Assembly (NCBI GenBank): GCA_030746435.1
Contig: JASLMV010000013.1
Coordinates: 1-64,000 of the forward strand
Length of the DNA: 64,000 nucleotides
DNA from: Gammaproteobacteria bacterium
Lineage (GTDB): Bacteria; Pseudomonadota; Gammaproteobacteria; Steroidobacterales; GCA-2729495
Direction of reading: 5' to 3'
Part shown: piece after piece, positions 29,273 to 44,799 of the stretch
How positions within the stretch are numbered: the first letter of the stretch is position 1
Layout of the letters: each line of letters begins with the position of its first letter
Translations under genes and position numbers: made by a program
Notes under the pieces: generated by a model
What the model was told of the DNA's origin: nothing
Database searches by the model: none
What the model saw: only the letters and a program-made list of their open reading frames with translations

Positions 29273-30571
29273 CTAGGCCCTGTACCCATATTTAGCGAAG
29301 ATCTTCTCGTCGTAGACGTAACCGTAACCCGGGCCCTCCGGTAGTTCGTACACACCGTCTTTCACCTTGTTCTGGTTTTCGATCATCTGCCAGAAGAACG
29401 GGTCCATGTCGGGTATGTAAACTTCCACGCCGTGTTTAACCCCGTCGGGCGTTGCCGCCATCAGGTGCGCGGCCATCTGCGGCTGCTGGTGCACCGACAT
29501 CTCCACCCCGAAGGCCTGCGCCAGCCCGTAGACTTTGCGCCATGCAGTTGGGCCGCAGGCATAACCCGGGTCGTAGTTGCAAACGTCGATTGCGTTGTCA
29601 GTCATCAGGTAACGCGCGCCGTCGATAGTGAGTTCTGACTGGCCGGCACAAATGGGCAGACCCGTGGCCGAGCGCACCCGGGCCATATCCAAACGTCGGC
29701 GGCAGGGCTCTTCGAACCAGCGCAGGTCCAGGTCCTGTACGCGCCGACCGAAATCGATGGCCTGGTCTACGTCCCAGCGCTGGTTTGCGTCGGCCTGGAG
29801 CAGAAAATCGGGGCCGACGGCCTCACGAACGATGCGCACCCACTCCGCATCCTCGGCCGGCGTGAACGGCGGACGGGCAGGTTTGAGTTTCACGCCGCCG
29901 AAGCCCATATCGATGAGTTCGGCCATGTGCGCGCCGAATTTTTTGGCATCGTAATTGGCGCCGGGATGACGGTAACGCTGATCGAAGGAGATCGCCGGCA
30001 ATACATTCGTGTGAGCACCCCACATCTTGTAACAGGGTGCACCGTATGCCTTGCCGACTGTATCCCAGAGCGCATTATCAACTGCGGCGAGTGCGCGCGT
30101 GAACTGCGGGAGGACCGAATTACCGGTCCCGCGACCGAACTCGCGATCGAGCACGTACCAGGCGCGTTGCCAGCAGGCTTCGATCTGCAGCGCGTCCATG
30201 CCGATCAGCAGGGGTTCGATGCCGTCGCGAATAATCTCAATAACTTTGTCCCAGCTATGCCAGAAGAAAGTGTAGGCCTCGCCAACGACGCCTTCTTTCG
30301 TGTAGATGCGCACGAACAAACGGGGGAAGGCAGCACCCATTTTCGTTCCGTCGTGCAACCAGAAGAGCTCGATCGATTCGATAACGAGAGCATCCGCCCC
30401 GGGCCTGGGAATCGGGGGTGCAACGATGGGCATCGTTGCACTGTGCGCGCCTGCGTGCGTCATTAAAGGCATCGCTGCGCCGACCAGGCCCAGGCTACCG
30501 GCAAGCAGCTGCCTGCGGTTGATTGTTGTTGTAGGGTTGGCAACCGCGTCTTTTGGGTATGCTCGTTTCAA
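29273..30571 (-). CDS. Mandelate racemase / muconate lactonizing enzyme family protein, Tat-exported
   Basis: This is an enolase-superfamily protein of 432 residues that abstracts a proton next to a carboxylate. The KxK motif is in GGVKLKPARPP, and the metal ligands are in LLQADANQRWD, RWFEEP and GQSELTIDGARYL. A late His (MSVHQQPQ) fits the mandelate-racemase group. The N-terminus is an apparent twin-arginine signal (NRRQLLAGSLGLVGAAM), so it probably acts in the periplasm, which is uncommon for this family. The substrate is unknown. Confidence 0.82.
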   Translation of the reverse strand: MKRAYPKDAVANPTTTINRRQLLAGSLGLVGAAMPLMTHAGAHSATMPIVAPPIPRPGADALVIESIELFWLHDGTKMGAAFPRLFVRIYTKEGVVGEAYTFFWHSWDKVIEIIRDGIEPLLIGMDALQIEACWQRAWYVLDREFGRGTGNSVLPQFTRALAAVDNALWDTVGKAYGAPCYKMWGAHTNVLPAISFDQRYRHPGANYDAKKFGAHMAELIDMGFGGVKLKPARPPFTPAEDAEWVRIVREAVGPDFLLQADANQRWDVDQAIDFGRRVQDLDLRWFEEPCRRRLDMARVRSATGLPICAGQSELTIDGARYLMTDNAIDVCNYDPGYACGPTAWRKVYGLAQAFGVEMSVHQQPQMAAHLMAATPDGVKHGVEVYIPDMDPFFWQMIENQNKVKDGVYELPEGPGYGYVYDEKIFAKYGYRA

Positions 30572-31736: not shown

Positions 31737-33713
31737 ATGATCAGGTTGCTCTTGTTGCTCTTATTATTCCCTTGCGCATTACATGCGCAGGAATGGCCGG
31801 TGTGGGGCGGAAACCCGGAGGGCACAAGATACAGCGCGCTGGACCAAGTCAATGCGGACAACGTCGACGACCTTGAAATCGCCTGGCAGATCAGAACGGG
31901 CTCGTTAGATAAGTATGGCGTCGAGCTCAGCAAGACCGTCGGCTTCCAGGCTAATCCAATCCTCACACCGCCGGCAGCCGGCCGGTCGCTGGTCCTGTGC
32001 ACGCCGTTTAACGAGGTGTTGGCACTCGACCCGGCGACCGGAGAAGTGCGCTGGAGTTTTGATCCGCATATCGATCTTGGAGGCAACGGCAGCGACGCCG
32101 ATCCCGACGGAGAGAATGCAACCGCTTTCCTGAAGTGTCGTGGCGTCGCGTTCTGGCAGGACGATCAGTCGACAGACAATGCCGCCGCGTGTACCAGCCG
32201 TATTTTGCTCGCCACAAATGACCTCAGACTGTTCGCGCTGGATGCGCGGACGGGTGAGTTGTGCAAAGGCTTCGGTAAAGATGGCGAAGTCGACGCCGAA
32301 CCGTTCTACATGGATAAGAAACCTGTCTGGAAGCACGAGGTTCGTTTCTACAATCCGCCGGTGGTTGCCGGTGACCTGATGATTCTGACAACAAAGGTAC
32401 GTGACAACCACCGCTGGAATGCACCGGCGGGGACGCTCCGGGCCTTTTCGGTTCGCACGGGTGCGCTGGTGTGGCAATGGGATCCGGTGCCGCGCGATGC
32501 GAACGACCCGATGCACAAGATCTGGGATAAGGATGCTGCACGCGAAACCGGTGGCGGGCAGGCCTGGGGCATGCTCAGTGTGGACGAGGAACGTGACCTG
32601 CTGTTCCTGCCGACCTCCAGCCCGTCGCCCGATTTCTACGGCGGTACACGACCCGGCAACAACGAATACGCCGACTCGATCGTGGCGCTGAGGGCATCGA
32701 CCGGCGAATACGTCTGGCATTTCCAGACGGTACATCACAATGTCTGGGACTACGACAATGCGGCGCAGCCGGTGCTCATCGATCTCGTCAAAAACAACAA
32801 GCCGTTTCCCGCCGTCATCCAGGCGACCAAGACCGGCATGCTCTATATTTTCCATCGCGAAACGGGCGAGCCCTTTTTCGCAATCGAGGAACGGCCGGTA
32901 CCGACTAACGGCGTCGCGGGTGAACAACTGTCGCCGACGCAGCCCTTCCCGGTAGCGCCACCGCCACTCGTGCCGCATGATTTTGACTGGGACGACGAAT
33001 GGTGGCTGACCTTCGGAGCCTGTAAAGAGTTTTTTGCCGATGCCCGCATCGGGCCGATCTTCACGCCGCCGAGCCTGGAGGGTACGGTTGTGGTGCCGTC
33101 AACCGCGGGGGGCGTCAACTGGGGTTCGGTTGCGATCCACGAGCCGTCAAACACGCTCGTGACCAACGTACTCAACATGCCGCACTTCGCACAGCTCGTT
33201 CCCAACAGCGAGGTAACCGAGCCCCGACCGGATGCGGGGCCCAACGACATGAACTCGCTTAATCCCATGCACGGAACACCGTATCACCTCAGGCAGGGGC
33301 CTTTTATGTCGCCACGCTTCCTGCCGTGTAGTAAGCCGCCGTGGGCCATGGTCGTGGCGGTCGATCTCCAGAAAGGCACTATTAAATGGGAAGCGCCGTT
33401 GGGCACTGCCGACAAACTGTCACCCATACCCATTCCGTTTAAGTGGGGCACGCCGACTTTTTCGGGGGGCATCGTTACGGCAGGCGGGCTCTTCTTTATA
33501 GGGGCTACCGTAGACAACCGCTTCCGCGCGTTCGACATCAAAGACGGTGACGAGTTGTGGACCGTGAAACTGCCGACCAGCAGCTTCGCGCACCCGATGA
33601 CCTATTCAATAGACGGCAAACAATACGTCGTGATCGTTACGGGCGGCCATCCCTTCATCGACCAGGATCCGGGCGACTGGGTAACCGCGTTCGCGTTGCC
33701 TGAGGGACAGTGA
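31737..33713 (+). CDS. PQQ-dependent dehydrogenase (quinoprotein glucose/alcohol dehydrogenase type)
   Basis: A periplasmic quinoprotein of 658 residues that oxidises an alcohol or sugar using pyrroloquinoline quinone. A Sec signal (about 1-18) is followed by WPVWGGNPEGTRYSALDQVN, the usual start of the eight-bladed propeller. Several tryptophan-docking repeats are seen (DPATGEVRWSFD, VRTGALVWQWD, KDGDELWTVKLPTSS). The membrane-type five-helix anchor is absent, so it is soluble. No cytochrome CxxCH motif is present. Its last codons and its stop lie inside a palindromic repeat arm (33704-33719). Confidence 0.87.
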   Translation: MIRLLLLLLLFPCALHAQEWPVWGGNPEGTRYSALDQVNADNVDDLEIAWQIRTGSLDKYGVELSKTVGFQANPILTPPAAGRSLVLCTPFNEVLALDPATGEVRWSFDPHIDLGGNGSDADPDGENATAFLKCRGVAFWQDDQSTDNAAACTSRILLATNDLRLFALDARTGELCKGFGKDGEVDAEPFYMDKKPVWKHEVRFYNPPVVAGDLMILTTKVRDNHRWNAPAGTLRAFSVRTGALVWQWDPVPRDANDPMHKIWDKDAARETGGGQAWGMLSVDEERDLLFLPTSSPSPDFYGGTRPGNNEYADSIVALRASTGEYVWHFQTVHHNVWDYDNAAQPVLIDLVKNNKPFPAVIQATKTGMLYIFHRETGEPFFAIEERPVPTNGVAGEQLSPTQPFPVAPPPLVPHDFDWDDEWWLTFGACKEFFADARIGPIFTPPSLEGTVVVPSTAGGVNWGSVAIHEPSNTLVTNVLNMPHFAQLVPNSEVTEPRPDAGPNDMNSLNPMHGTPYHLRQGPFMSPRFLPCSKPPWAMVVAVDLQKGTIKWEAPLGTADKLSPIPIPFKWGTPTFSGGIVTAGGLFFIGATVDNRFRAFDIKDGDELWTVKLPTSSFAHPMTYSIDGKQYVVIVTGGHPFIDQDPGDWVTAFALPEGQ

Positions 33714-37112: not shown

Positions 37113-39530
37113 CTAGTTTCTATACGAAATCTGTATTCCACAAAGGCGTTCATTGCGATTGACTACCGCATAATGCGGCACGCCCATAATATCGCGCGGC
37201 GGTAGCGCGAATAACGGCGTGTCGTCATCCGTCAGGTTGTTGCAAAAGCCCTCGACAATCCAGTTGTCGTTGCGAATGCCCAGGCGCAGGTTGACCGTTT
37301 CGCGGGAGGGCACGTAACCCTGGTTCGCCATGTCAATGTAGACTTTGTCATTCCAGGAATAGTCGAGGCGGCCCATAAAATCCCACTGAGTTTCGAATAG
37401 CGGCCAGTTGACTTGGATACCTGCGTTAAACATTTTCTCAGGGGTGCCGACGATATTCTGGCCATCCAGCGAGCCACTGGTAAGCGAAAGTGGCCCAAAT
37501 ATTGCGTCACAGGGAATGACCAGGTTCTCGCAATCCTTCATAGCACTAATGGTTGCGCTTTCACCGTCTTTGTATTCGGCATCGATGATTGCGGCACCGA
37601 TATTCAGATCCAGCCATTCTGTGGGCGCATAGAAGCCCTCCAGTTCGGCTCCCCAGATTTCTGACTCTGCCACGTTTACCGTGATCGGTAATTGAGCATT
37701 GTCAGGATCAATCGTTGTAACCTGCTGATCCTCCCAGTCTATGTAGTAGACCGCACCGTTCACACGCGCTTTCCCGTCGAGAAAGGTCCACTTCGAACCC
37801 AGTTCATAGGTCCAGTTCTTTTCCTCATCGAAGACAGGCTCGGCCATTGAGCCCGGATTAAAGCCGCCCGATTTCACGCCCTTTGCGACAGACCCGTAGA
37901 CCAACAGGTCGTCTGTCGGGGTGTAATTCAGAATAAAGCGGGGGGTCAAAAAATCAAAATCTTCTTCCTGCTTACCGGTTGGCGGTACGCCGGTAGGAAA
38001 GTTGTTTTCAAATTGATCTGCTTCCTTTTCTTCACGCGTGTAGCGAGTTTCGGCCACCACATTCCAGGTGTCACTGATGTCGTAACCCAGCGAACCATAA
38101 ACCGAGAAAAAATCATTCCGGAAATCGATCGTGGAATCGACCTGAACATTATATGGGTCAGCGAGCGCATAGAACTTGGTTCCATCCCTATTTGATAGTG
38201 TAATGTCGCTGAGCCGTTGTCTCTGATCCTCGAAGTCCTCTGTGCTGTAGTAAATGCCCGTAGACCACTGCAGGCGACCATCGCCGGTGGATTGCAACCG
38301 GAGATCCTGGCTGAACTCATCCCGATCCTCGGCCGCTCCTGTAAGTATTGTGCCAATAATCGGGGCCTGGGCCAGAGGGCCGCCAAAAAATGTACCGTAT
38401 GCAGTCGGGCTGACGGTATCGCACACAGCGGCCCGCACGTCTCGCCTGCAGGTGCTGAAATCCCGGAGATAGTCGAACTCACGATCCTGATAACCGGTCA
38501 AGCCAATCAGCTGAAAGTTTTCGAAATCGAGCTCAAACTTGAGGCTAACGCGCCAGATTTCTCTATCGCCTGCATAAGATCGGGGGTCGACCCAATATCG
38601 ATCGCTGGTGTTACGAATAGCTCCGTCCATCAACTGCGGAATCGTACCACCACCGCCTGCTGCAAATTCAAACGGACTTGCCAGAAACCACTGGCCTACC
38701 CTTTGGGGGTCGTCATCGGCAACCATGGTTACGGCCGCAGGATTGGAGTCGTCTTCCTGGTAAGACAGCGCCAGGTTGAAGCGCAGCCGATCATTGGCAT
38801 CCCATAAAGTCCCCCAGCGTACAAACCTGGTCTCTGTGCTGTTCAGCTGATCGCCGTTGGCCGTGTTTTCGTGGGTTCCGCCGGTCTGGTTGTAGCCTGT
38901 ATCAATACGCATCGCCAGCGTATCGTCAATAAGAGGCCCGGAGACAAATGCCGACAGGCCTTCGCGATCATCCTGGCCCAGCGTAACCCGCCCGCCGTAT
39001 TCAAACTCGTATGTCGGTTTCTTCGTGACATAGTTGATGGCACCGGCAAAACTGTTGCGTCCGTACAATGCACTCTGCGGGCCTTTCAAGACCTCAATGC
39101 GTTCGAGCGACTCGAAGCCAAAAAACTCGGATCCGCTAAATCCTGGCGTGTAGACCCCGTCAATGAAATTCGCCACGTTGGGTTCATCACCGACGCGGGT
39201 CTGCTGCGCCAGACCACGGATAATAACTCGGGTACCTGAAACTGAACCCGTCGTCCCGAAGCTTACCCCGGGTGTCTGTTGTGCCAAACGTTCGAGGTTG
39301 TAGACATCCCGAATCCTCAGGTCTTCAAAAGTGAGGGCGGTGATCGAGATAGGTACCGATTGCAAGTCTTCTTCCCGCCGGCGGGCGGTAACGGTTAGTT
39401 CTTCTACACCTGATAAAGTGGTGCTGCTGGGCGGTTCTGCAGCATCTTCCTCCGCCAGCGCAAATGATGAAATTGCCAGGCAGGTTGCTGCAAACAGGGC
39501 ATGTTGCCCGAAACTAATGAAATGTCGCAT
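37113..39530 (-). CDS. TonB-dependent outer-membrane receptor
   Basis: An 805-residue receptor that takes up a ligand with energy from TonB-ExbBD. A Sec signal (about 1-26) is followed by a TonB-box-like EELTVTARRREEDL. The plug domain follows (about 50-170, with VPISITAL, RGLAQQTRVGDEPNVANFID and VLKGPQSALYGRNSFAGAIN) and then the 22-strand barrel. The style is that of receptors for sugars, siderophores or plant-type compounds in marine proteobacteria. The ligand is unknown. The next gene upstream is an LLM oxidoreductase on the same strand. Confidence 0.92.
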   Translation of the reverse strand: MRHFISFGQHALFAATCLAISSFALAEEDAAEPPSSTTLSGVEELTVTARRREEDLQSVPISITALTFEDLRIRDVYNLERLAQQTPGVSFGTTGSVSGTRVIIRGLAQQTRVGDEPNVANFIDGVYTPGFSGSEFFGFESLERIEVLKGPQSALYGRNSFAGAINYVTKKPTYEFEYGGRVTLGQDDREGLSAFVSGPLIDDTLAMRIDTGYNQTGGTHENTANGDQLNSTETRFVRWGTLWDANDRLRFNLALSYQEDDSNPAAVTMVADDDPQRVGQWFLASPFEFAAGGGGTIPQLMDGAIRNTSDRYWVDPRSYAGDREIWRVSLKFELDFENFQLIGLTGYQDREFDYLRDFSTCRRDVRAAVCDTVSPTAYGTFFGGPLAQAPIIGTILTGAAEDRDEFSQDLRLQSTGDGRLQWSTGIYYSTEDFEDQRQRLSDITLSNRDGTKFYALADPYNVQVDSTIDFRNDFFSVYGSLGYDISDTWNVVAETRYTREEKEADQFENNFPTGVPPTGKQEEDFDFLTPRFILNYTPTDDLLVYGSVAKGVKSGGFNPGSMAEPVFDEEKNWTYELGSKWTFLDGKARVNGAVYYIDWEDQQVTTIDPDNAQLPITVNVAESEIWGAELEGFYAPTEWLDLNIGAAIIDAEYKDGESATISAMKDCENLVIPCDAIFGPLSLTSGSLDGQNIVGTPEKMFNAGIQVNWPLFETQWDFMGRLDYSWNDKVYIDMANQGYVPSRETVNLRLGIRNDNWIVEGFCNNLTDDDTPLFALPPRDIMGVPHYAVVNRNERLCGIQISYRN

Positions 39531-39645: not shown

Positions 39646-40677
39646 TTATAGCTTTGCCAGCACTGGCACTACTTTTTCGCCAATCAGCCGGATCGACTTG
39701 TCCGGTTCGTTGTAGATGCGTAGTGCAATATTGGTAAGTCCCGCGTCGCGAAATTGCCGCAGGCGATCGATTTCATAATCTATTTCCGTCGCCGGCGATG
39801 CGGATGTACATCGTCGTGCGATCTTATCGACGATATCGTCCGGAACGCCATCGATATCCGGGGACTTTTTCTGATAGGCGCGAATAAACGCATTGATATT
39901 CTCCTTGACGAGTTGCTTCTCCTCACCTTCGAGAATATCGTCGAGGTAGTGATCGTAAATCGTACCGCGCAAGGCAAGCCACGTACGCGCCTCGCGCAAT
40001 GCTTCTTCAGCGCTGTCCTTGACATGCCAGGCCCAGAAATTATTTATCCGAAAATCGGTCGGATCGCGCCCGCATGCTTTCTGTGATTCATCGATGATCT
40101 CCCGCGCCCAGCGTACACGGTTAATGACGAAATCGCTGACCATGATACCGTCGGCGTAACGTGCCGCCGCGCGCAGCATTTGCGGACCGTTCGCACCGAT
40201 ATAGACGATTGGAGGCGGGCTCTTCGCCCAGGTAGCGTTGTACCAGCCTACCTTGAAGAGTTCGCCCTCGTATTGCACCGGCTTACCCGTCGCTCCGGCC
40301 TTGATAATCTCGAAACATTCGCGTACTGCGCGGACGACGCGGTGCGGCTTGACACCTATTGCCTGAGCCGTACCGTCACCCGCGCCGACCACGATCTGCG
40401 CGCGGCCATGGGTCAGTTCGTTTAACGTCAGCAGCGAACTGGTCATCTTGAGAGGATGCAGTTCAAACGGACTTACGGCAATCGGCCCGACCCGAATACG
40501 CTGCGTAGCAAGACCGAGCTGTGCGAAGTTCATGAACGGGTCGCGTGCGTCACTCATGTTCGATACCCAGACGCCACCGAGGCCGCATTCCTCGGCAAGT
40601 TTGCCGAGTCGTCGTACGGTTGCAGGCGAATTGTTCGATTCTAGTATGACGTCGATTTTCATCGAGGGGCGCCCCAC
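39646..40677 (-). CDS. LLM-class flavin-dependent (luciferase-like) oxidoreductase
   Basis: A TIM-barrel oxidoreductase of 343 residues of the bacterial-luciferase/F420 family. It shows LGGVWVSNMSDARDPF, LATQRIRVGPIAVSPFELHP, GRAQIVVGAGDG and YADGIMVSDFV. The family binds FMN or F420; which one is used here is not visible. A start at MKIDVIL (five codons later) is also possible. It lies between the TonB receptor and the multicopper oxidase, all on the minus strand, so it may act on the same compound; this is inference. Confidence 0.85.
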   Translation of the reverse strand: MGRPSMKIDVILESNNSPATVRRLGKLAEECGLGGVWVSNMSDARDPFMNFAQLGLATQRIRVGPIAVSPFELHPLKMTSSLLTLNELTHGRAQIVVGAGDGTAQAIGVKPHRVVRAVRECFEIIKAGATGKPVQYEGELFKVGWYNATWAKSPPPIVYIGANGPQMLRAAARYADGIMVSDFVINRVRWAREIIDESQKACGRDPTDFRINNFWAWHVKDSAEEALREARTWLALRGTIYDHYLDDILEGEEKQLVKENINAFIRAYQKKSPDIDGVPDDIVDKIARRCTSASPATEIDYEIDRLRQFRDAGLTNIALRIYNEPDKSIRLIGEKVVPVLAKL

Positions 40678-40759: not shown

Positions 40760-42733
40760 TTATTTGCTCAAGGCAACCGCATCGTCGTCAGTTTGTGTCG
40801 AAGCCAGCGGTTCTTCGGAAGGTCCATCAACCACGACGATTTCCGTCAGCATGCCGACAGCGGCATGGTGGAAGATATGACAATGGAATAGCCAGCGTCC
40901 CAGCGCGCCACCAGGCGAGCCATCAGACTTCGGCCGGTCCTCCAGCGGCACTCGCACCACGGCCGTATGAAATGGCGGTATGTCGATGGTATCCACAAAT
41001 TCGTTGTATGAGTGCTCGTAAACCGTTTCCGTCTCCCCCTGGAAGGAATTGTTGAACACGATACGCACCGGCTGAAATGAAAATCCGTGCAGGTGCATCG
41101 GATGATGCGCTTGTGAGAGGTTGGCAATCTCGATTTCCAGCATGCCACCGACCTCTGCGAAACGACTGGAGTTCAGGTAAGGAATATCGCGATGGTCCCG
41201 GTCGCCTGTTTCGTCGGGAGGGATGGTGGCGTGATAGCCATCCATGGCTTCGCGCATCTGAATGACGTTGAGTTGAAAGACATTACTCGACATGCCGGGT
41301 CGTGGCGGCTCCATTTCTGCCGGATCCAGAAATGTAGCCAGCGCACTGTGGTCCTTGATGCTGGCTACCGGTGAGCCGACCTTACGGTGAATGCGCAAAG
41401 GGTCACCCTCAGCGAGCGTGCGCGTTTCCCGACCGGCGGCACCCCTGACGCGAAAATGCGCAACGGGAACCGTGGGCAGGCCGCCGTAACCGTACGGATA
41501 AGTCTGTGTGCCATAGCGCTGGTAATCCTGCGTCCAGAGGGTCAACACTTCGCCGGGCTCGAGGTCCGGCACGTTGAACACAATGTCTGCACGATTTGCA
41601 TTGGCGAGCAGAATTTCACCTTGCCGATACTTGGTGTCGAGTTTGCCCATCATGCCGCCCTCGATCCTCACGCGATCGAGCAAACCGCCCTCGCCACCAA
41701 TGCGCAGCAACGGAATATCATTACCGGCACTGTCGGTAAGGCGCAACCAGAAATATCGATTCACCGCGGCATTGATGAGTTGCAGGCGCACCGGCCCGCC
41801 GCTCTCGATATCGACCACTTCCGCCGTCTCGTCAATCAGCGCGCCGGGTTTCTCGGGTGTGCCAAGGCGACCCGCGGCCATGCGGCCGTTCGTCAGCACC
41901 AGCTGCCCTTCGTTGACTCGGCAGTGATCACCGAATGCACATTTCAGGGAAGGTTTTATATTCGGAATATCACCTTTCGCGAGGGCGCCGTCGAGGGGGT
42001 TTCCCATATCATCGCGAGGTGTTTCACACAGATCGCGCGGCGATGGCCATGCCACCAGGCCCGGAAAATCCCCCAGTTCGGCTTGATGCACCCACGACAC
42101 ATCCGCGCCCGGTTTATAGGTCACTTCGTCGTTCTGGCCCGGTTCTTTGCATACCGTCGTATCGGCGAGCACGAGAACATGCGCATCGCTTGCCGGCGGC
42201 ACGATGCCTATCTCACCGAGCTTCTCGTCTGCGGTACTGGTGACGATTATCGGACCATACAAACCCTTGAATTCGTCATTGGAAGGCATCGAATGCGGGT
42301 GGTAGAAAAACACACCGGGGCGAGGCACGACGAAATCGTAGGTGAACGTCTCACCCGGTGGCACAGGGTTCTGAGTCACCTCGGTACCATCGTTTGCATT
42401 GTCCAGTTCGATACCGTGCCAGTGCACAACATTCGGTTTGGGCAGTTCGTTACGAAAGTGCACGATAAGACGCTGTCCAACACGCAACCGGATCAGCGGA
42501 CCGGGTGTGCCGCCGTTGAACGTCCATGCATTCGCCATCAGGCCGTCGCCGGACAGGTCCACCGATTTGACAGCCGCCACGAGATCGATTTCGACGACAT
42601 CGGGATCGGGATTCAGGTCGACGGCCTCGAACAGCTGGTTGTATCCGGTGCGAGGACCCCGGTCACCGGCGCTCGCCACGGCTGCGGCCAGCAGCAAAAG
42701 CCCTGCAATAGGTAGGCGTATGGAAATTTTCAT
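40760..42733 (-). CDS. Multicopper oxidase, secreted
   Basis: This oxidase uses four copper ions to oxidise a substrate (phenols, metal ions or similar) and reduce O2 to water. All copper motifs are present: HWHG, FFYHPHSM, HPMHLHGFSF and HCHIFHHAAVGM. A Sec signal (IRLPIAGLLLLAAAVASAG) shows export. The start I use (42733) gives 657 residues, has GGGAG upstream, and overlaps the stop of the preceding gene as ATGA. An upstream in-frame ATG at 42772 is unlikely. The coupling to the unknown secreted protein suggests they work together. Confidence 0.92.
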   Translation of the reverse strand: MKISIRLPIAGLLLLAAAVASAGDRGPRTGYNQLFEAVDLNPDPDVVEIDLVAAVKSVDLSGDGLMANAWTFNGGTPGPLIRLRVGQRLIVHFRNELPKPNVVHWHGIELDNANDGTEVTQNPVPPGETFTYDFVVPRPGVFFYHPHSMPSNDEFKGLYGPIIVTSTADEKLGEIGIVPPASDAHVLVLADTTVCKEPGQNDEVTYKPGADVSWVHQAELGDFPGLVAWPSPRDLCETPRDDMGNPLDGALAKGDIPNIKPSLKCAFGDHCRVNEGQLVLTNGRMAAGRLGTPEKPGALIDETAEVVDIESGGPVRLQLINAAVNRYFWLRLTDSAGNDIPLLRIGGEGGLLDRVRIEGGMMGKLDTKYRQGEILLANANRADIVFNVPDLEPGEVLTLWTQDYQRYGTQTYPYGYGGLPTVPVAHFRVRGAAGRETRTLAEGDPLRIHRKVGSPVASIKDHSALATFLDPAEMEPPRPGMSSNVFQLNVIQMREAMDGYHATIPPDETGDRDHRDIPYLNSSRFAEVGGMLEIEIANLSQAHHPMHLHGFSFQPVRIVFNNSFQGETETVYEHSYNEFVDTIDIPPFHTAVVRVPLEDRPKSDGSPGGALGRWLFHCHIFHHAAVGMLTEIVVVDGPSEEPLASTQTDDDAVALSK

Positions 42734-43779
42734 TTCGCCACTCCCTTGACGGTCAGGTAACCTCCCTGCCACGAGTTATTGTGTTCCTGCTCTGAAAGTT
42801 CGAAGTTGGCTGGGACTCCCGGGATGTAATACTCATTGGTCCAAAAGCCTGCAGCCTCGACTACCTTTGCCTCGCTATCTGTTGATACTTTTAACAACAG
42901 GTTGTCCCAGCTGGAATCCTCACCCTTACCCTCGGTGTCCCAGACAACAATCCCGTCCTTGCACGCCGCGCCGCCACGGTTATCCTCGCAGGTCATCCCT
43001 TTGAACTCGCCGATGCTGACTGTGCCGGGGTTCCCGCCGTGTATGCCGCCCAGCGCTTCGTTCCGCACATTCGGCAGCGACCCGGGCTCCTTCCATCGCC
43101 CCGCGTGGCCCATGCCGCCAACGGTGGTTGGTGCGTTTTCACTGGTAAAGCAATCTTCAGGGTCGTTTTTCATACAGATTAAGGTTGGAAATCCCTGCTC
43201 TCCGACCACATAGTCGAATCCGCCGTGCTCATTTGGCTCGGCGAAGTTCACCGTGACCGGCGCGACCGTATGCGTGAGGCTGTCCCACTTCTGAACCGCA
43301 CGAGGCGGCGCACCCGCGACACCGCCACGCAACTCGTTCACATTGGTAACAACGGAACGTGCCGCCGGCCCGACAACCAGCCTGGCGCTCAATTGATCAT
43401 CAAGAGGATCCGGTGTGCCACGGTCATCTACGGCAATCACTCCATCGAGTGTGGGTGCGATTCGATCATCGCCCGGCTTTGGAATGTAGTCCGGGTTGGC
43501 ATGTTTGCTGTCCCTGGCGAAATAAACCGGATTCACCGTAGGGCCGACCCAGGGCAGCTCCACACCAGCAAGTTCCGGCAACGAGCGTGCGTAGGTACAA
43601 TCAGCGCCGAACACGAATGGCGTCATATGAATGCATGCGTTCTCCTGTGTACCGTTGAGATGACCACTCACAGTGGTCTGTTGTCCGGGCAGCGGGCCGG
43701 CCGCAAGGGCGTAGCTGCCGAAGGCCTGCATAGCCAGAATCAATAATATGAGAGCCGAGGTTCGGGGTGATGTACGCAT
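42730..43779 (-). CDS. Unknown secreted protein coupled to the multicopper oxidase
   Basis: I do not recognise this protein of 349 residues. A Sec signal (about 1-27, ALILLILAMQAFGSYALAA) precedes a Gly/Pro/Asp-rich mature part with six cysteines, an even number that could form three disulphides. No catalytic motif or membrane segment is visible; it looks like a beta-rich extracellular domain. The start at 43779 has a strong AAGGAG site; an earlier GTG/ATG at 43800 is less likely. Its TGA overlaps the oxidase ATG, so the two are made together. Confidence 0.75.
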   Translation of the reverse strand: MRTSPRTSALILLILAMQAFGSYALAAGPLPGQQTTVSGHLNGTQENACIHMTPFVFGADCTYARSLPELAGVELPWVGPTVNPVYFARDSKHANPDYIPKPGDDRIAPTLDGVIAVDDRGTPDPLDDQLSARLVVGPAARSVVTNVNELRGGVAGAPPRAVQKWDSLTHTVAPVTVNFAEPNEHGGFDYVVGEQGFPTLICMKNDPEDCFTSENAPTTVGGMGHAGRWKEPGSLPNVRNEALGGIHGGNPGTVSIGEFKGMTCEDNRGGAACKDGIVVWDTEGKGEDSSWDNLLLKVSTDSEAKVVEAAGFWTNEYYIPGVPANFELSEQEHNNSWQGGYLTVKGVAK

Positions 43780-43923: not shown

Positions 43924-44037
43924 GGAACCCTGAATTGACGGGTTTTGCGCCGATTTAGCGGGCAGCAATAGTCATGTGTGCGTGGGTGGCGTTGAGCGGC
44001 ATTGGCAGCGGCCCCGCCAATGCCGCGGCAGACAGGA

Positions 44038-44799
44038 TCAGGTCTTTACAAATTCGAGCAACAGAAAGATTTGACCGAAAATAAACGCGTTTGGCCCGCC
44101 GACGTGAAGCAGCAGGCCTCCCTTATCGGACGACACCTTGAGTACAGGGTGGGCTTTGCAATCGGCTTCGAATTGCACAAGCCGTTTAAGTGCCTGTTCC
44201 AGTTTCGCATCGGGTTCAGCGAACAGAATTGAATAGCCGTCGTCATCCCACCATATATGAACATGCCGGCCACGGAACTCGGACAGGAGGCTGCGGGAAT
44301 CGTCATCGGCCAGCTTGCAGCCAACGCACTCAAACAGTTTGGTAAATGATGGGCGGCCTAACGACTGGCTGTGCCCGCACGCACGCTCGATCAGGTCGCG
44401 GAACTGCTCACCGGTAGGTTCGCCTGCCGGGCGGTTAAGATGCTTGATCAGGTCATCCCGGAACAGCTCCAGCTCGTGTCGCAATACGAGCATTTCGGTT
44501 GTCCGTTGCTCGATATCCAGGAACCGTTGTTCGGTTAGCTTGCGAAGATCTGCGTATTCTCTGGACATTTCTCCGGTTGCGCTAAGAATCAGTTTAATAT
44601 CTTTAAGGGAGAACCCACACCGCTGGGCGCTACGAACAAAGCGAAGTGTGTGCTCAGCTTCCGGGCGATACAGCCGGTATCCGGAGTCCGTGCGCCCGAC
44701 GGGCAGGAGAATCTTTTCTCTTTCATAGAATCTCAGCAACGATGTAGCTACGTTGACTCGCTTGGCCAGTTCGCCAATGGTTATAGCTTCGGTCATCAT
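44038..44799 (-). CDS. MerR family transcriptional regulator
   Basis: The N-terminal winged helix (ITIGELAKRVNVATSLLRFYEREKILLP, a partial block, then SGYRLYRPEAEHTLRFV) is that of MerR proteins, followed by the dimerising coiled coil (about 80-125). The C-terminal part is longer than in classic metal sensors and carries an ERACGH...FECVGC cysteine pair of unknown role, then an unfamiliar helical and beta domain. The start is at one of two ATGs at 44796/44799; an upstream start at 44835 is possible. It is near, and may control, the oxidase pair, which is inference. Confidence 0.8.
   Translation of the reverse strand: MMTEAITIGELAKRVNVATSLLRFYEREKILLPVGRTDSGYRLYRPEAEHTLRFVRSAQRCGFSLKDIKLILSATGEMSREYADLRKLTEQRFLDIEQRTTEMLVLRHELELFRDDLIKHLNRPAGEPTGEQFRDLIERACGHSQSLGRPSFTKLFECVGCKLADDDSRSLLSEFRGRHVHIWWDDDGYSILFAEPDAKLEQALKRLVQFEADCKAHPVLKVSSDKGGLLLHVGGPNAFIFGQIFLLLEFVKT

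What the first reader, a model, noticed from the sequence alone, without database searches (positions are those of the whole stretch)
40760..43779. Unknown six-cysteine secreted protein translationally coupled to a multicopper oxidase
The unknown gene ends in the ATGA that starts the oxidase. Both have export signals, and a MerR gene with a nearby dyad lies upstream. Such tight coupling suggests a complex or a substrate-delivery partner. I know no described pair of this kind.
Basis: partly seen in the sequence, partly recalled or inferred. Interest (0 to 1): 0.55.

Follow-up and report, generated by a model that had tools for sequence, protein, structure and literature searches.

The report
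Secreted partner of a copper oxidase
Some little-known bacteria make a copper-using oxidase together with a second exported protein of an unnamed family, so the two probably work as a unit on large organic molecules at the cell surface, although nothing has yet been tested in a laboratory.

Summary
Both genes are real. The unknown (P1, 42730-43779 minus, 349 aa, six Cys) overlaps the multicopper oxidase (MCO, 40760-42733 minus, 657 aa) by ATGA. The link is not chance: this MCO subfamily occurs in 12 of 396 genomes of the order, and all 12 carry a close P1 next to it. A thirteenth close P1 is cut by a contig end. A 4-nt overlap is possible in 8 of 12 pairs. The MerR link fails: MerR homologues lie elsewhere in the relatives, and the dyad follows the MerR stop codon. 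P1 has no Pfam, NCBIfam, PHROGs or PDB sequence match; two moderate AlphaFold models suggest a beta-barrel, with no confident Foldseek hit. P1 belongs to a wider, lineage-restricted family, mostly without MCO: surface proteins with Ig-like repeats, often beside or fused to TonB receptors (17 of 59 places). Pair neighbourhoods often hold TonB receptor, LLM monooxygenase, Rieske/VanA, TauD, esterase or VOC genes. Best reading: P1 is a dedicated, non-catalytic, ligand-presenting partner of a laccase-like MCO in uptake and oxidation of organic, perhaps aromatic, compounds. Partnership is well supported; chemistry is inferred.

The parts
42730..43779 (-). P1: secreted six-cysteine protein of an unnamed family, predicted beta-barrel
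   Evidence: ORF and translation; six Cys invariant in 10 rows; no Pfam/NCBIfam/PDB/PHROGs match; models
40760..42733 (-). Multicopper oxidase, laccase-like, with its own signal peptide
   Evidence: Pfam Cu-oxidase_3 and Cu-oxidase_2; copper-ligand motifs HWHG, YHPHS, HHPMHLHG, HCHIFHHAAVGM
42730..42733 (-). ATGA overlap of the P1 stop and MCO start
   Evidence: a 4-nt stop/start overlap is possible in 8 of 12 pairs
39646..40662 (-). LLM-class (luciferase-like) monooxygenase downstream; also beside the pair in G004, G007, G025 and G032
   Evidence: Pfam Bac_luciferase E 1e-45
37113..39530 (-). TonB-dependent receptor at the end of the same-strand run
   Evidence: Pfam Plug and TonB_dep_Rec_b-barrel; homologue directly upstream of P1 in G001 and G004 and divergent in G030
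44038..44796 (-). MerR-family regulator: considered, judged not part of the unit
   Evidence: homologues in 30 of 40 family genomes, none beside P1-MCO outside the window
43996..44026 (.). Perfect 11-nt inverted repeat just past the MerR stop; not evidence for an operator of P1
   Evidence: no terminator hit there

Best explanation
P1 is a dedicated, exported, non-catalytic partner of this MCO. It folds as a disulfide-stapled beta-barrel and probably binds or presents a bulky hydrophobic or aromatic molecule. The MCO oxidises that molecule at the outer membrane, and in many genomes a TonB receptor imports it for breakdown by LLM, Rieske, TauD or esterase enzymes. Shown here: the genes, the overlap, the exclusive pairing, the catabolic neighbourhood in most pairs, and the repeated link of P1-domain proteins to TonB receptors. 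Inferred: physical contact, ligand binding, substrate class and order of steps.
For: MCO subfamily (profile A3, E<=1e-60) in 12 of 396 genomes of the order; all 12 have close P1, adjacent and same strand. In 99 relatives: 11 and 11, the same genomes. 4-nt overlap possible in 8 of 12. P1 and MCO identity matrices of 9 pairs correlate, r 0.81, 0 of 5000 permutations (host relatedness not removed). In G095 the esterase, MCO, P1, VOC, TauD and TetR genes share low GC3 (0.60-0.66) against flanks of 0.75-0.88, as if imported together. Neighbours: VanA-type Rieske, TauD, COesterase, Glyoxalase/VOC, ALDH, MFS. P1-domain proteins and TonB receptors: 4 fused, 9 codirectional and 4 divergent within 1 kb, 17 of 59 places, with 12-27 receptors per genome in 11 genomes of the family. 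Two models give barrel-like folds; middling VIA matches include BcnB, YceI, LbpB/TbpB, DynF and PsbO.
Against: Models have mean pLDDT 65.5 and 69.8; no Foldseek match at E<=0.001; VIA Z is mostly under 8, which the tool says may be only a common arrangement, and membrane barrels (PagL, OmpA) score as high as soluble ones. At 46 of 59 places P1-domain proteins have no MCO. In G014, G020 and G036 no receptor or LLM lies within 1 kb. G859 has a P1 fragment at a contig end and no MCO match. No contact, ligand or activity data.
Confidence: 0.5

Rival explanations
1. P1 works with the TonB receptor as a surface ligand-binding protein; the MCO is co-expressed from the same operon but does not touch P1.
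For: P1-domain proteins lie beside or are fused to TonB receptors without any MCO; some carry sorting-signal-like tails.
Against: Close P1s are found with the MCO in every complete case, but with a receptor within 1 kb only in G001, G004 and G030, so P1 follows the MCO more tightly than the receptor.
Confidence: 0.22
2. P1 is an assembly factor or copper-delivery chaperone for the MCO, like the tyrosinase caddie protein MelC1 (recalled).
For: Stop/start overlap and exclusive pairing.
Against: No His- or Met-rich copper motif in the conserved columns. The cysteines behave as pairs across the family, consistent with disulfides. Most family members have no MCO nearby.
Confidence: 0.15
3. A MerR-controlled copper-resistance operon of the CopA/CueO kind.
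For: MerR gene upstream; MCO profile scores to copper_res_A and CueO.
Against: Scores are far below cut-off (copper_res_A 100 vs 479 bits; CueO 74 vs 525). MerR is not beside the pair in other genomes. Neighbours are catabolic.
Confidence: 0.05

Closest known systems
Mnx manganese oxidase (MnxE, MnxF, MnxG); PMC5622069, passages read
   Same: An MCO encoded contiguously with accessory proteins that have no known relatives and are needed for an active complex
   Different: MnxE and MnxF are about 12 kDa and bind copper; P1 is a 349-aa precursor with likely disulfides; MnxG (139 kDa in the paper) is far larger than this 657-aa MCO and acts on spores
Iodide oxidase IoxA/IoxC; PMC9415286, passages read
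   Same: Extracellular MCO found with a second protein of unclear function from the same cluster
   Different: IoxC is given as 71 kDa and the cluster holds SCO1-family genes; no IoxC sequence was available to compare
Laccase plus dirigent protein (plants; proposed for VdtB/VdtD in fungi; PMC6600887, passages read)
   Same: A laccase-type enzyme working with a non-catalytic partner that steers the product
   Different: No sequence match; dirigent AtDIR6 appears only once among weak fold matches (Z 4.0, 104 aligned, rmsd 4.2); the context here is catabolic
TbpB/LbpB surface co-receptors of TonB receptors (function recalled)
   Same: Barrel-containing surface proteins partnered with a TonB receptor; LbpB/TbpB rows at Z about 4-7
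   Different: No sequence relation found; P1 here is with an oxidase and shows no lipobox by eye

Membership tests
Multicopper oxidase superfamily (MCO gene) | Cu-oxidase domains at the N- and C-terminal ends | tested here: met
   PF07732 E 4.4e-29 and PF07731 E 1.1e-21
Multicopper oxidase superfamily (MCO gene) | Four copper-ligand motifs with T1 Cys, His and Met | tested here: met
   Window protein has all four; all four found in 9 of 10 homologues, in G020 the regular expression missed the second motif; ligand columns invariant in A3, 7 rows
CopA/PcoA copper-resistance oxidase (TIGR01480) | Curated model score | tested here: not met
   100.2 vs 478.95 bits
CueO (NF008205) | Curated model score | tested here: not met
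   74 vs 525 bits
Any named Pfam family (P1) | Sequence profile match | tested here: not met
   0 families at E<=1 for P0001; one chance-level family, Sema4F_C, best E 0.029, in 2 of 10 homologues
Calycin-like ligand-binding barrels (YceI, BcnA/B, TbpB/LbpB, dirigent) | Fold | tested here: inconclusive
   VIA: LbpB Z 7.2 (133 aligned, 4.3 A), BcnB 7.1 (142, 4.7), YceI 6.0 (142, 4.5); DIR6 4.0 (104, 4.2); no Foldseek match at E<=0.001
Mnx accessory subunits | About 12-kDa copper-binding proteins forming a hexamer with the MCO | tested here: not met
   Size only: P1 is 349 aa against about 12 kDa; copper binding and oligomers not testable here
IoxC | Sequence relation | not testable with these tools
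   No Iox sequence was at hand; P0001 has no plasmid match
GlyGly-CTERM/rhombosortase system (long P1-domain relatives, not P1 itself) | Processing protease present in the genomes | tested here: met
   TIGR03902 over cut-off in 31 of 40 family genomes, over cut-off in 0 of 14 control genomes
GlyGly-CTERM/rhombosortase system (long P1-domain relatives, not P1 itself) | Tail matches a curated model | tested here: inconclusive
   No GlyGly-CTERM model hit in 10 proteins; tails fit by eye only; VPLPA-CTERM just under cut-off in two of the 10

The most novel reading that the evidence does not exclude
P1 founds a new class of extracellular ligand-presenting barrel that bacteria plug into different machines. 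With an MCO it forms a bacterial counterpart of the laccase-dirigent pair, controlling what the oxidase attacks or makes. With TonB receptors it is a co-receptor, in four genomes encoded as one in-frame chain (P1 domain, Ig repeats, sorting-signal-like segment, internal signal-peptide-like segment, TonB receptor) that would have to be cut into two proteins.
Probability: 0.15. Interest if true: 0.8.

Novelty: new variant of a known kind. Interest (0 to 1): 0.5.

Why it matters
Few MCOs are known to need a partner protein, and in the known cases the partner is tied to what the enzyme can do. A new obligate partner, tied by neighbourhood to receptors and ring-attacking enzymes, would give a testable handle on how uncultured bacteria attack resistant organic matter. 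The P1 domain is also a new family to annotate, with a strong link to TonB receptors.

Tried and rejected
Rejected: MerR/copper-resistance operon. Rejected: dyad as P1 operator (position past the MerR stop; no promoter or terminator excess in the region). Led nowhere: sequence relatives of P1 in Pfam, NCBIfam, PHROGs, PDB and plasmids (the profile search of PDB gave only chance-level hits to viral envelope proteins, E 0.07, not followed). The P0002 plasmid search gave only partial MCO matches (0 of 29 records covering 80% of the query). Literature searches for a similar pair found Mnx, Iox and dirigent analogues but no P1-like protein; only listings were seen except for the passages read. Absence from print is therefore claimed only for these searches in an open-licence library.

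Weak points: the class (2 of 369) and phylum (1 of 398) scans are even samples of larger groups, and so is the order scan (396). TonB adjacency was scored by similarity to two receptors, so it may be undercounted. Gene calls in GC-rich loci are by ORF length and codon-position GC, not by a gene finder. The first identity correlation was wrong because two MCO frames were mis-set; it was corrected. Fold families not listed by VIA are not excluded.

Full report
What is there. The minus strand carries, in order, MerR (44796..44038), P1 (43779..42730), MCO (42733..40760), an LLM monooxygenase (40662..39646) and a TonB receptor (39530..37113). P1 and MCO share the ATGA at 42733-42730. P1 has six Cys and an N-terminal signal peptide by eye. 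MCO has Cu-oxidase_3 and Cu-oxidase_2 domains and all copper-ligand motifs, plus its own signal. By eye the MCO homologues of G001, G004 and G030 show lipoprotein-like Cys boxes, which would place the enzyme at a membrane in those genomes (sequences).

Is the pairing real? In 99 relatives, P1 at E<=8e-83 and the MCO at E<=1e-60 occur in the same 11 genomes. In 396 genomes of the order the MCO profile (A3, E<=1e-60) hits 12 genomes; the P1 profile (A1, E<=1e-5) hits 34, of which 12 are close (E<=1e-150) and are the same 12. A thirteenth, G859, has a close P1 fragment at a contig end and no MCO match. In the loci examined, MCO follows P1 on the same strand in 12 of 12 (L053 is the G001 pair, L057 the G864 pair and L060 the G859 fragment, matched by contig position). 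A 4-nt overlap of stop and start is possible in 8 of 12; G030 has a 9-nt gap, G864 a 67-nt gap, and G004 and G001 use other starts. Outside the order P1 is rare: in samples of the class 2 of 369 and of the phylum 1 of 398 genomes, all of the window's own genus. Of the 34 genomes, 31 are in the window's family (40 held) and 3 in one genus of another family. Pairwise identities of P1 and MCO correlate over nine pairs (r 0.81; 0 of 5000 permutations; one near-twin, G036, dropped; G001 and G025 left out as incomplete), which shows shared inheritance but does not separate it from host descent.

Neighbourhood. Twelve pairs plus G859 were looked at. TonB receptor: window (two genes past the MCO), G001 and G004 (directly upstream), G030 (divergent), G095 and G859 (a few genes away). 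LLM: window, G004, G007, G025, G032. TauD: G004, G095, G864, G859. VOC: G095, G864, G859. VanA-type Rieske: G004 (two), G030. COesterase: G095, G030 (one copy of each kind was Pfam-scanned, others assigned by similarity or by eye). G014 and G036 have an ApbE gene after the MCO (Pfam-tested in G014), and G020 has nothing recognised. So 9 of 12 pairs, or 10 of 13 with G859, sit by at least one such gene. LLM genes are common (1-9 per genome in 38 of 40 genomes), so a single adjacency means little; three of the five are in one genus. In G095 the cassette has lower GC3 than its flanks, which suggests import as a block. MerR homologues exist in 30 of 40 family genomes but not beside the pair elsewhere.

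The wider P1 family. Profile hits in the loci gave 60 rows; one (L103) is the other end of a gene split between contigs (L039), leaving 59 places. The MCO is adjacent in 12 of the 59; one more (G859) is cut by a contig end; 46 have none. Long members carry Big_9 repeats. Many end in a Gly-Gly/Ser, hydrophobic, Arg-rich tail. Rhombosortase, the protease of GlyGly-CTERM proteins (PMC3237569 and PMC6219818, listing and abstract starts only), is over cut-off in 31 of 40 genomes. The curated tail models did not fire, so this label is by eye. TonB receptors: fused in 4, codirectional and near in 9, divergent within 1 kb in 4, so 17 of 59. With 12-27 receptors per genome in the 11 family genomes counted (67 in G095) and some 2,500 genes (my estimate), about one would be expected. 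The rows are related, so this is not a formal test. The four fusions keep the tail-like segment and a second signal-peptide-like segment in frame before the plug.

Cysteines. Across the family Cys 1 and 2 are both present in 52 of 52 rows aligned at both; Cys 3 and 4 are both present in 26 and both absent in 24 of 55; Cys 5 and 6 are both present in 43 of 56. This favours disulfides 1-2 and 3-4, with 5-6 likely, rather than metal sites.

Fold. Models from 10 and 12 sequences reached pLDDT 65.5/pTM 0.72 and 69.8/0.76. Foldseek gave nothing at E<=0.001. VIA gave barrel proteins for both: PagL Z 10.1 (138 aligned, 3.9 A), 3rwx 9.6 (111, 3.3), OmpA 8.9 (155, 4.3), LbpB 7.2 (133, 4.3), BcnB 7.1 (142, 4.7), DynF 6.2 (140, 3.7), YceI 6.0 (142, 4.5). 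I read this as a barrel of unassigned kind; a soluble calycin-like barrel is my inference from the family's fusion to Ig repeats. Long low-confidence stretches remain.

Mechanism. Most likely P1 and MCO are made together, exported and act as a unit, P1 giving the oxidase its ligand. Shown: genetic unit and context. Inferred: contact, ligand, aromatic substrate. The main rival is that P1 serves the receptor and the MCO is only co-expressed, but P1 tracks the MCO better than the receptor.

Known systems. MCO with partners: Mnx, Iox, laccase with dirigent. P1 matches none of them by sequence profile or size where that could be tested. Verdict: new variant of a known kind, with a new domain family.

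Noticed in passing
L044:6202-11226, L045:3325-8241, L108:9222-13628, L112:2712-7493: Single open frames joining a P1-domain surface protein, Ig-like repeats, a sorting-signal-like segment, a second signal-peptide-like segment and a full TonB receptor, in four genomes: a possible bacterial polyprotein. In L100, L090 and L120 the two genes are separate with gaps of 63, 0 and -4 nt.
   Followed up: partly
L040:7295-10076, L041:5333-8134, L042:6490-9286: Standalone P1 paralogues without MCO lie beside GH3-family (two) or AMP-binding (one) adenylating-enzyme genes, hinting at carboxylic-acid ligands.
   Followed up: partly
L038:3539-10506: Esterase-MCO-P1-VOC-TauD-TetR block with GC3 0.60-0.66 between flanks of 0.75-0.88: likely horizontally acquired.
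   Followed up: no
window 40760-42733 (residues about 185-285 of the MCO): Subfamily-specific stretch with four invariant Cys (C195, C236, C265, C271) outside the Pfam copper domains; a candidate P1 contact.
   Followed up: no
window 44038-44796: The MerR regulator has a C-terminal part of about 140 aa beyond the Pfam MerR domains; full-length homologues are common in the family (30 of 40 genomes with a match).
   Followed up: no
L046:4692-15461: Three P1-domain genes in tandem, two with dockerin-like ends and one of 1982 aa.
   Followed up: no
window 31737-33713 and 29273-30571: A PQQ-type dehydrogenase and a mandelate-racemase/enolase-superfamily protein near the cluster, in keeping with organic-compound oxidation.
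   Followed up: no
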